From IMG/VR virus record IMGVR_UViG_3300032286_002176, positions 1-35,536 of that record: a stretch of 35,536 nucleotides of DNA, one strand, 5' to 3'. The notes under the pieces were generated by a model. That model saw only the letters and a list, made by a program, of their open reading frames with translations. It did not search any database and was not told the origin of the DNA. Below, piece by piece: positions 28,877 to 30,700 of the stretch. This DNA comes from a virus. Position numbers and translations under genes: made by a program. The number at the start of each line of letters is the position of its first letter. The first letter of the stretch is position 1.

Positions 28877-29184
28877 CACCCCTCCAGATCAGCGCGATAG
28901 GGTTGCAGGGGCCGCGCACAAACAATCTCCAGCGCTGCATCGGCCAGCGCTTCCAGCGCGGGCGCATATCGAACCCGCATGGGCGGGATCAGCGTCACCC
29001 ACCAGCGGGCATAGACATGCAGCGCCAAAAACACCTGCAGCCCATTCATATGGTCCGCAGCCGCTTCATTCGGGCCGATGCGATCCAGGGCGTCACGCAA
29101 ATGCGCCGCTGCCCCTGCATCACGGGGGGCCAAAACCGCCCGGTGCGCGCCCGCAATCAATATTTCGCCAGGTGTGCGCCCCAT
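28876..29184 (-). CDS. Unknown small protein, early minus-strand operon
   Basis: 102 residues, Ala-rich and helical (GAAAHLRDALDRIGPNEAAA, ALEALADAALEIVCARPL), soluble, with no recognised domain. It is translated in a coupled chain: its ATG (29184) sits in a TGATG overlap with the Cro-like gene stop, and its own stop overlaps the DnaA-like start. Its place suggests a role in early lytic control or replication start. Confidence 0.6.
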   Translation of the reverse strand: MGRTPGEILIAGAHRAVLAPRDAGAAAHLRDALDRIGPNEAAADHMNGLQVFLALHVYARWWVTLIPPMRVRYAPALEALADAALEIVCARPLQPYRADLEG

Positions 29185-29435
29185 CACAGATCAACCCCCG
29201 GCGGGGCAAAGTCAGCGAAGGTGAGAGCCTTCGAGTGGTGTTTGGCATAATTGAGCAGGTCTTCATGGTAGCGAGACGGCACAAGCCCGCCTTGGCCACC
29301 CCGCTCGCGCGGCAGGGGCCACTTACGAACCGCCTCAGTCGTAAGATCGCAGACGTAGGCAACAGTCTTAATATCACCCAGCGCGGCAATGACACGCGCA
29401 ACCGGAGTGTTACTTGCTATTAACTCATTTGACAT
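29184..29435 (-). CDS. Cro-like HTH regulator
   Basis: 83 residues. VARVIAALGDIKTVAYVCDL followed by TTEAVRKW is a helix-turn-helix of the YdaS/Cro kind, and RGGQGGLVPSRYHEDLL..ALTFADFAPP is a common ending of small phage Cro-like proteins. It is divergent from the CI-like gene and is the first gene of the minus-strand lytic operon, the classical cro position. ATG 29435 has GGAG 11 bases away, a rather long spacing; the frame is open upstream to 29486 but across operator sites. Confidence 0.75.
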   Translation of the reverse strand: MSNELIASNTPVARVIAALGDIKTVAYVCDLTTEAVRKWPLPRERGGQGGLVPSRYHEDLLNYAKHHSKALTFADFAPPGVDL

Positions 29436-29456
29436 TTTGTAAACAGCTCCGTATAT

Positions 29457-29482
29457 GGAAAATAAATCCGGAAACTTTCTCC
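29457..29482. promoter_or_regulatory. Tandem operators O1 and O2 (cro/CI intergenic)
   Basis: Two 13-bp sites abut: GGAAAATAAATCC (29457-29469) and GGAAACTTTCTCC (29470-29482). Both fit GGAWW-N3-WNTCC, a dyad with half-site GGAAA/GGATT. They lie just upstream of the Cro-like start. O1 is the exact reverse complement of O4 at 30639-30651. Binding by the CI-like and Cro-like proteins is inferred. Confidence 0.65.
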
Positions 29483-29526
29483 ACATAAGGGAACAGATTT
29501 GGGAAAATTCGTCAATAGCGCGATCC

Positions 29527-29539
29527 GGATAAATTTTCC
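29527..29539. promoter_or_regulatory. Operator O3, just upstream of the CI start
   Basis: GGATAAATTTTCC has the same half-sites and spacing as O1, O4 and O6. It lies 4 bases before ATG 29544, where bound repressor could block its own transcription or translation start. Confidence 0.55.
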
Positions 29540-29543
29540 GATT

Positions 29544-30173
29544 ATGCCCTCTATGGATCCCTTAGAGATCAAAAATCGCTTAGATGACTTGGGCCGGGGA
29601 GCACGCACACGCTTTGCCGAAGCCCTCAGCATTGACACGTCAACCGTCGCTAAAATTTTGAACGGCAGCCGCCGCGTGCTCGCCTCAGAACTTCCGAAGA
29701 TCCAAGTTTTCTTTGATCAAGCCGAGCGAATGCCGAAATTCGAATCACCGGCAAACGATCCATCCTACGTTGCCTTTGGCTACACCGGGCGACCGCAGCT
29801 TTGCCCTGTATACGGTACGGCAATGGGCAGTGACCCGTCCGGGCCGGTCTACATGGATGATGCAACGCCTGATGAATATGTGCCCATGCATCCGAATCAG
29901 GTGGGTAAGAAAGAACCCTTTGCGCTGCGCGTGATCAACGAAAGTATGTCCCCCCGGTTTGAGCCGGGTGAGATCGCCTATTGCATCCGCAACCAACACC
30001 CCAGGCGCGGGCAGGATTGCATCATCGAAATGAAAGATGGCGGGGCTTACATCAAGCAGTATGCCAAGGGCGACGGCAGCACGGTTTTTGTTCGACAGCT
30101 CAACCCTGAAAAAGAAATTCCCTTAGCTCTAAAAGAGATCAAGGCTATCCATGCGGTTGTGGGCCGGGGATGA
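29544..30173 (+). CDS. CI-like repressor, S24/LexA family
   Basis: 209 residues. The N-terminal helix-turn-helix (RTRFAEALSIDTSTVAKILN, residues 21-40) is followed by a linker and an S24 domain with Ser134 (INESMSPRFEPGE) and Lys171 (GGAYIKQYAKG), the usual Ser-Lys pair. It is expected to maintain lysogeny by binding the GGAAA-type operators around 29.46-29.54 and 30.64-30.69 kb. Where the family is normally cut (Ala-Gly or Cys-Gly), this protein has PVYGTAMG, so induction by self-cleavage is uncertain. Start ATG 29544 (or 29553) has no clear Shine-Dalgarno sequence, so the message may be leaderless. Its stop overlaps the next gene. Confidence 0.85.
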   Translation: MPSMDPLEIKNRLDDLGRGARTRFAEALSIDTSTVAKILNGSRRVLASELPKIQVFFDQAERMPKFESPANDPSYVAFGYTGRPQLCPVYGTAMGSDPSGPVYMDDATPDEYVPMHPNQVGKKEPFALRVINESMSPRFEPGEIAYCIRNQHPRRGQDCIIEMKDGGAYIKQYAKGDGSTVFVRQLNPEKEIPLALKEIKAIHAVVGRG

Positions 30174-30598
30174 TCCGCCGCGCACTTCTGATTGTCGCCT
30201 TGGCGACATCGGCTTGCCAACAACCCCCAGCAACTACGCCACAGCCACCATGCTGGCTCCACCCGTTCAATCCCGAGTTTGCCATGCCGCCACCACCGAA
30301 ATGGCCGCAGATGATCCTTCCCTGGGCAGCGCCGCTGCCGGATGTGATTTGGCCCGGCTGCCCCACCCGCGTCCATCACGTTGTCCTGCCGCGTGAAACC
30401 ATGATCGTTCAGGGGCCCATGCTCACTTTCGGCGATTACCCCTGCACGCGGGATTGCTCTGGCCATAGCGCGGGTTACGACTGGGCTGCCTATAACGAGA
30501 TCGGATCGGCGGACGACTGCCCAGTCGACACCAACAATTCATTTTACGAGGGCTGCCTAACGTGGATCGAGGAGCAATCTTCTGCAGCAGGACCCTAG
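30170..30598 (+). CDS. Secreted Cys-rich protein, probable lipoprotein, coupled to CI
   Basis: 142 residues. The signal peptide MIRRALLIVALATSAC has a possible lipobox at Cys16 (Thr at -3 is unusual). A Pro/Trp-rich region follows, then a compact domain with PCTRDCSGHSAGYDWA (Cys92, Cys96) and DDCPVDTNNSFYEGCLTWIEE (Cys117, Cys129), four Cys that could form two disulfides in the periplasm. I have seen this DCSGH.AGY.WA...SF.EGC pattern in small uncharacterised proteins. The ATG overlaps the repressor stop (ATGA), so it would be made in the lysogen: a candidate lysogenic-conversion or superinfection-exclusion factor (inference). Confidence 0.75.
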   Translation: MIRRALLIVALATSACQQPPATTPQPPCWLHPFNPEFAMPPPPKWPQMILPWAAPLPDVIWPGCPTRVHHVVLPRETMIVQGPMLTFGDYPCTRDCSGHSAGYDWAAYNEIGSADDCPVDTNNSFYEGCLTWIEEQSSAAGP

Positions 30599-30638
30599 GC
30601 CTCAACTCATTGATTTCAGAGCCTCTTCTAGAAGGGTT

Positions 30639-30651
30639 GGATTTATTTTCC
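30639..30651. promoter_or_regulatory. Operator O4 upstream of the early promoter
   Basis: GGATTTATTTTCC is the exact reverse complement of O1 (29457-29469). A degenerate site, GGAAATTTCTACT, follows directly (30652-30664), so the tandem arrangement of O1-O2 seems repeated. The region from 30599 to here holds no gene. Confidence 0.6.
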
Positions 30652-30670: not shown

Positions 30671-30700
30671 TTGACAATGTGGAAATTATTTCCATATTCT
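30671..30700 (+). promoter_or_regulatory. Early rightward promoter with operator O6 in its spacer
   Basis: A perfect -35 TTGACA (30671-30676) and a -10-like TATTCT (30695-30700) are 18 bases apart. The spacer contains the perfect palindrome GGAAATTATTTCC (30681-30693), the best operator of the set. A repressor bound there would cover the promoter, as in lambda PR. It would drive the plus-strand early genes from 30791 to the integrase. Confidence 0.75.

What the first reader, a model, noticed from the sequence alone, without database searches (positions are those of the whole stretch)
30170..30598. Cys-rich secreted protein translated together with the CI repressor
A gene overlapping the CI stop by ATGA would be expressed in the lysogen. 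The product has a signal peptide with possible lipid anchor and a four-Cys domain (CTRDCSGHSAGYDWA, SFYEGC) I cannot assign to a known function. Coupling of an envelope protein to immunity suggests superinfection exclusion or surface change by the prophage.
Basis: partly seen in the sequence, partly recalled or inferred. Interest (0 to 1): 0.75.

Follow-up and report, generated by a model that had tools for sequence, protein, structure and literature searches.

The report
Envelope protein coupled to phage repressors
A dormant phage carries, overlapping the end of its master repressor gene, a gene for a small disulfide-rich protein predicted to be fixed in the cell envelope; genes with the same unnamed domain sit in the repressor operon of four other phage lineages, so it probably helps a lysogen keep other phages out, but that function is untested.

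Summary
ORF 30170-30598 (142 aa) starts in the ATGA that ends the S24-type CI gene. It has a lipobox (C16), a Pro-rich linker and a four-Cys domain (residues ~86-136). No Pfam, PHROG, NCBIfam or PADLOC model matches.

The domain belongs to an undescribed family, here called CSGHxAGY: F-x-G-x2-C-x3-C-S-G-H-x-A-G-Y-x-W-A...C...S-F-x-E-G-C. AlphaFold gives a two-helix hairpin (pLDDT 85). The cysteines are gained and lost in pairs (C1/C2, C3/C4), which fits two disulfides. The domain is scattered in secreted proteins and lipoproteins of diverse bacteria.

The key new result: the same domain lies in the immunity-repressor operon of four more phage lineages. It overlaps the repressor stop in L027/L028 (S24), L011/L089 and L020, and is third in the operon in L173-L176. 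In L011 versus L089 the DNA-binding parts of the repressors are unrelated, while the lipoproteins stay 62% identical. So the link between immunity and an envelope protein recurs.

Best explanation: a lysogen-expressed superinfection-exclusion lipoprotein. It would work like Ltp of phage TP-J34 (lipid anchor, spacer, small helical domain, lysogeny module) but shares no detectable homology with it. Function is inferred only.

The parts
30170..30598 (+). Gene for the predicted lipoprotein with the CSGHxAGY domain (142 aa)
   Evidence: ORF and ATGA overlap; homologues
30170..30217 (+). Signal peptide and lipobox, MIRRALLIVALATSAC (C16 lipidated)
   Evidence: Lipobox pattern match; not a trained predictor
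30218..30424 (+). Pro-rich spacer, residues 17-85, with C28 and C64; 18 Pro in residues 17-80
   Evidence: Sequence; no homologues found for this part
30425..30577 (+). CSGHxAGY domain, residues 86-136: C92-x3-C96-SGH, helix 97-109, C117, helix 123-139 containing C129
   Evidence: Alignment A3; AlphaFold pLDDT 85.4, pTM 0.69; paired cysteine loss
29544..30173 (+). CI-like repressor, HTH plus Peptidase_S24 (ORF opens at TTG 29499)
   Evidence: PF00717 E 2.2e-10; PHROG 4 E 1.7e-18
30170..30173 (+). ATGA stop/start overlap between CI and the lipoprotein gene
29184..29486 (-). Divergent Cro-like gene
   Evidence: P22_Cro E 6.5e-4, below the curated cut-off
29457..29471 (+). Operator-like repeat GGAAAATAAATCCGG
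   Evidence: 3 matches in the window against 0.34 expected, 0 of 100 shuffles
29525..29539 (-). Operator-like repeat GGAAAATTTATCCGG
   Evidence: inverted-repeat partner
30637..30651 (-). Operator-like repeat GGAAAATAAATCCAA, after the lipoprotein gene
30671..30700 (+). Sigma-70-like promoter (TTGACA...) in front of the next operon (xis-like gene to integrase)
   Evidence: Consensus scan; not evidence of function by itself

Best explanation
The gene is a lysogeny-module gene, translated together with CI from the same message, so its product is made whenever the repressor is. The product is exported and lipid-anchored. A proline-rich spacer holds out a small two-helix hairpin locked by two disulfides. 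Most likely this hairpin acts as a superinfection-exclusion factor: in the envelope it meets an incoming phage's tail or ejected proteins, or a host entry factor, and blocks DNA entry, much as Ltp of phage TP-J34 does. Shown here: gene position, repressor identity, lipobox pattern, domain homology and recurrence in repressor operons. Predicted: fold and disulfides. Inferred: expression in the lysogen, location, and the exclusion function and its target.
For: ATGA coupling to an S24 repressor. The same arrangement in independent phage lineages: L027/L028 with an HTH+S24 repressor, divergent cro-like gene and GTGA overlap; L011 with an HTH_3 repressor and ATGA and L089 in Cupriavidus; L020 with an HTH_3 repressor, ATGA and a TM anchor; L173-L176 with repressor, 36-aa ORF, then the secreted domain protein, with a divergent cro-like gene. 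The window and L028 repressors are 21% identical, in the S24 part only; window and L020 repressors are unrelated. L011 and L089 repressors share only the last 30 residues while the lipoproteins are 62% identical over 154 aa, so the lipoprotein is kept while the immunity specificity changes. If a gene had a 1-in-50 chance of this position, 3 or more of 12 other lineages has probability about 0.0015 (rough). Literature parallels: Ltp has a lipid anchor, a spacer and a repeat domain, lies in the lysogeny module and blocks DNA injection (PMC3952083); lambda rexAB lies just downstream of CI (PMC12894663).
Against: No expression, localisation or plaque data. No PADLOC match. Most family members are ordinary secreted proteins of bacteria with no phage or defence neighbour. 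Several phage members (L009, L010, L012, L014, L018) lie away from the repressor. T4-like members look virion-internal. No homology to Ltp.
Confidence: 0.5

Rival explanations
1. A lysogenic-conversion gene that serves the host envelope rather than fighting phages. The prophage captured a bacterial secreted protein that improves host fitness (binding a ligand, surface change, stress tolerance) and runs it from the repressor promoter.
For: The domain is common in chromosomal secreted proteins and lipoproteins of Rhizobiales, Sphingomonadales, Caulobacterales, Xanthomonadales and CPR. In three alphaproteobacterial loci a YHYH-type secreted protein lies nearby, and L488 carries an Excalibur-like stretch before the domain (by eye), which suggests a general extracellular role.
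Against: It does not explain why the gene sits in the repressor operon in several lineages rather than anywhere in the prophage.
Confidence: 0.3
2. A membrane-side sensor or partner of the repressor: the coupled protein senses an envelope signal and modulates CI activity or induction.
For: Translational coupling at a fixed ratio to CI.
Against: The repressors differ widely (S24 against non-S24), and the domain is predicted to be outside the cytoplasmic membrane with no cytoplasmic part in the lipoprotein forms.
Confidence: 0.08
3. Relative of a virion-internal protein: the domain is an injected or packaged peptide, and the lipoprotein is a decoy or self-protection version of it.
For: In metagenomic T4-like phages the domain follows a capsid-targeting-like N-terminus and an L/I-x-E site; in L364 it is 55 bp after a major head gene.
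Against: No shared phage host and no co-occurrence of both forms was seen; the T4-like forms mostly lack C3/C4 and are basic.
Confidence: 0.07

Closest known systems
Ltp superinfection-exclusion lipoprotein of Streptococcus thermophilus phages TP-J34 and TP-778L
   Same: About 142 aa; lipobox, low-complexity spacer, small repeat domain responsible for exclusion; lies in the lysogeny module downstream of the CI-like genes
   Different: No sequence or profile similarity; Ltp has two Cys-free repeats, Gram-positive hosts, and is not ATGA-coupled to CI
Lambda cI-rexA-rexB and RexAB-type systems
   Same: Exclusion genes just downstream of CI, with a membrane component (PMC12894663)
   Different: Two-component abortive infection with a DNA-binding sensor and a membrane channel; here a single lipoprotein
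Ribosome modulation factor (PF04957)
   Same: Weak resemblance of a two-helix hairpin and a G-x2-A-G...C...G pattern; RMF is the top but non-significant Foldseek hit (E 1.0), Z 3.8
   Different: Profile comparison finds nothing; RMF is cytosolic and ribosome-bound
Excalibur and YHYH small secreted domains
   Same: Short Cys- and acidic-rich extracellular modules; a fusion or neighbour in a few loci
   Different: Different motifs; no family match to the domain

Membership tests
Ltp / host cell surface-exposed lipoprotein | Homology to the Ltp repeat domain | tested here: not met
   hhalign of A3 against Ltp repeats, probability 0.1% (only two Ltp repeats in the profile)
Ltp / host cell surface-exposed lipoprotein | Lipid anchor, spacer and helical domain encoded in the lysogeny module | tested here: met
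   Lipobox and Pro-rich spacer, helix hairpin, CI operon; all from sequence or prediction
Superinfection-exclusion proteins (functional class) | Made in the lysogen and blocks heterologous phage entry | not testable with these tools
   No expression or infection data
RexAB-type system | Two genes, DNA-binding sensor and multi-pass membrane effector | tested here: not met
   Single secreted protein; the next gene lies behind its own promoter-like and operator-like sites
Ribosome modulation factor | Profile match to PF04957 | tested here: not met
   Window protein has no Pfam hit; one of 55 members E 0.017; hhalign negative
Ribosome modulation factor | Shared fold | tested here: inconclusive
   Foldseek E 1.0, VIA-align Z 3.8, not above unrelated hits
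Known anti-phage defence families in PADLOC | HMM match | tested here: not met
   0 families for the window protein and 5 relatives
CSGHxAGY domain family (described here) | C-x3-C-S-G-H-x-A-G-Y-x-W-A and S-F-x-E-G-C with C3 | tested here: met
   Alignments A1-A3

The most novel reading that the evidence does not exclude
The CSGHxAGY hairpin is an undescribed entry-blocking module. Unrelated temperate phages have repeatedly placed it under their immunity repressor as a lipid-anchored or TM-anchored shield, while T4-like phages package the same fold in the virion, perhaps to counter such a shield or act on the same envelope target.
Probability: 0.15. Interest if true: 0.85.

Novelty: new variant of a known kind. 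Interest (0 to 1): 0.62.

Why it matters
Lysogeny-linked exclusion lipoproteins are known from Gram-positive phages (Ltp). Here a domain absent from Pfam, PHROGs, NCBIfam and PADLOC recurs in the repressor operons of several unrelated phages, with proteobacterial hosts where the host is known. If it excludes phages, it gives a sequence signature for finding such systems in genomes where they are now called hypothetical. The separate link to T4-like capsid-internal proteins would make the target testable.

Tried and rejected
Chance ORF: rejected by homology in frame. Known family: no match in Pfam, PHROGs, NCBIfam, PADLOC or PDB sequences (one search's best hit E 0.87 is noise). RMF relationship: suggested by one weak Pfam hit and the top Foldseek rank, dropped after hhalign. 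QslA (4ng2, Z 4.7): not above background. Relatives of the window's own CI and primase in IMG/VR: none found by exact-peptide scans. Named phages (INPHARED): no domain match. Pattern scans of IMG/VR were too loose: only seven true members among the loci fetched. Conserved chromosomal neighbour: LigD recurs, but among related Rhizobiales, so not used. The sequence-motif literature search found nothing.

Full report
What is there. The window is an IMG/VR virus record of 35,536 bases. Its structural genes are those of a podovirus-like phage: a head-tail connector matching PHROG 332 and resembling those of Pelagibacter and Vibrio phages. It also has an S24 repressor, a Cro-like gene, an xis-like gene and an integrase, so it is temperate. 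The ORF at 30170-30598 begins in the ATGA that ends CI. It encodes MIRRALLIVALATSAC (lipobox), a proline-rich linker and a C-terminal four-cysteine domain.

The CI control region. A 15-base repeat occurs three times against 0.34 expected: twice between cro and CI, and once just after the lipoprotein gene, in front of a TTGACA promoter-like site. The lipoprotein gene thus lies between CI and the next apparent control point. No plus-strand promoter-like site was found between the cro-CI region and the end of the lipoprotein gene, so co-transcription with CI is the simplest reading. This is inference from sequence.

The domain. It matches no curated model. tblastn finds it in plasmids. Alignment-based scans find it in 68 loci of GTDB genomes and 381 stretches of IMG/VR. 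It is patchy: 2 of 385 alphaproteobacterial, 8 of 398 Caulobacterales-order, 11 of 346 Sphingomonadales-order and 1 of 349 Burkholderiales-order genomes, the probe genome included in each count. The order names follow from the organisms of the probe loci. Outside T4-like phages it is mostly at the C-terminus of proteins with a signal peptide, lipobox or TM anchor (by eye). AlphaFold predicts a two-helix hairpin. C3 and C4 are present together or absent together in nearly all of 128 distinct domains (three exceptions carry a shifted second pair). L483 lacks C1 and C2 while keeping C3 and C4. This fits disulfides C1-C2 and C3-C4.

Recurrence in repressor operons. In L027/L028 an HTH+S24 repressor is followed by a lipoprotein with the domain, overlapping by GTGA, with a divergent small HTH-like gene. 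In L011 an HTH_3 repressor overlaps a lipoprotein gene by ATGA, with a divergent Cro/YdaS-like gene. L089, a Cupriavidus numazuensis prophage, has the same order (its repressor was recognised by eye and by the shared C-terminus, not by Pfam). In L020 an HTH_3 repressor overlaps a TM-anchored version. In L173-L176 a repressor-like gene (assigned by eye and by the divergent cro-like gene; Pfam only E 0.03) is followed by a 36-aa ORF and then a secreted version. The repressors are unrelated or only distantly related, so the association was made more than once or survived replacement of the repressor. L011 and L089 show the latter: unrelated DNA-binding parts, 57% identity in the last 30 residues, and 62% identity of the lipoproteins. 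The chance estimate of about 0.0015 rests on an assumed 1-in-50 position and a hand count of lineages, and should be read as rough.

How it most likely works. Superinfection-exclusion proteins are commonly held on the outer face of the cytoplasmic membrane by a TM helix or lipid anchor, and Ltp consists of an anchor, a spacer and an active repeat domain, made from the lysogeny module and blocking DNA injection (PMC3952083). The window protein has the same three-part anatomy and genetic setting. I therefore rate exclusion at the envelope as most likely (0.5). It works like Ltp but is not a member of that family. The main rival is a host-fitness conversion gene (0.3), since most relatives are plain bacterial secreted proteins.

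T4-like relatives. Of 89 distinct viral domain proteins, 60 have an N-terminus resembling a T4 capsid-targeting sequence, and 57 of these have an L/I/V/F-x-E site within 14 residues before the domain (loose patterns). T4 gp21 cleaves after L/I-x-E, and the IP propeptides target proteins into the head (PMC9026906). In L364 the gene follows a major head protein gene (phrog_138, E 6e-101). This suggests, but does not show, that these domains are packaged.

Noticed in passing
L025-L088, L171, L265, L364 and others (metagenomic T4-like phages): The domain is joined to capsid-targeting-like N-termini (MRAxEF..E, MKINDIL.E) with an L/I-x-E cleavage-like site directly before it; a candidate family of packaged internal proteins of T4-like phages.
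   Followed up: partly
L089:5063-5641 versus L011:9135-9647: Repressors with unrelated DNA-binding parts share the last 30 residues and keep a 62% identical lipoprotein gene downstream, a mosaic junction inside the repressor gene.
   Followed up: partly
L008, L016, L126: YHYH-type secreted protein genes lie within 0.7 kb upstream of the domain gene (same strand in L016 and L126, opposite strand in L008).
   Followed up: no
L488:1129-1659 (reverse strand of the locus): A stretch resembling an Excalibur calcium-binding motif (DLDADGDGIACE) precedes the domain in the same protein.
   Followed up: no
L009, L010, L012, L014, L018: In another set of phages the domain gene lies away from the repressor; in several of them it is followed by a small TM-protein gene and a convergent large phage gene.
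   Followed up: partly
window 30671-30700: TTGACA promoter-like site with a GGAAATTATTTCC palindrome between its hexamers, next to an operator-like repeat: likely control of the xis-integrase operon by CI.
   Followed up: partly
L103, L139, L142, L150 and other CPR MAG loci: The domain occurs in Patescibacteria; in L139 and L142 C3 and C4 are both missing.
   Followed up: no
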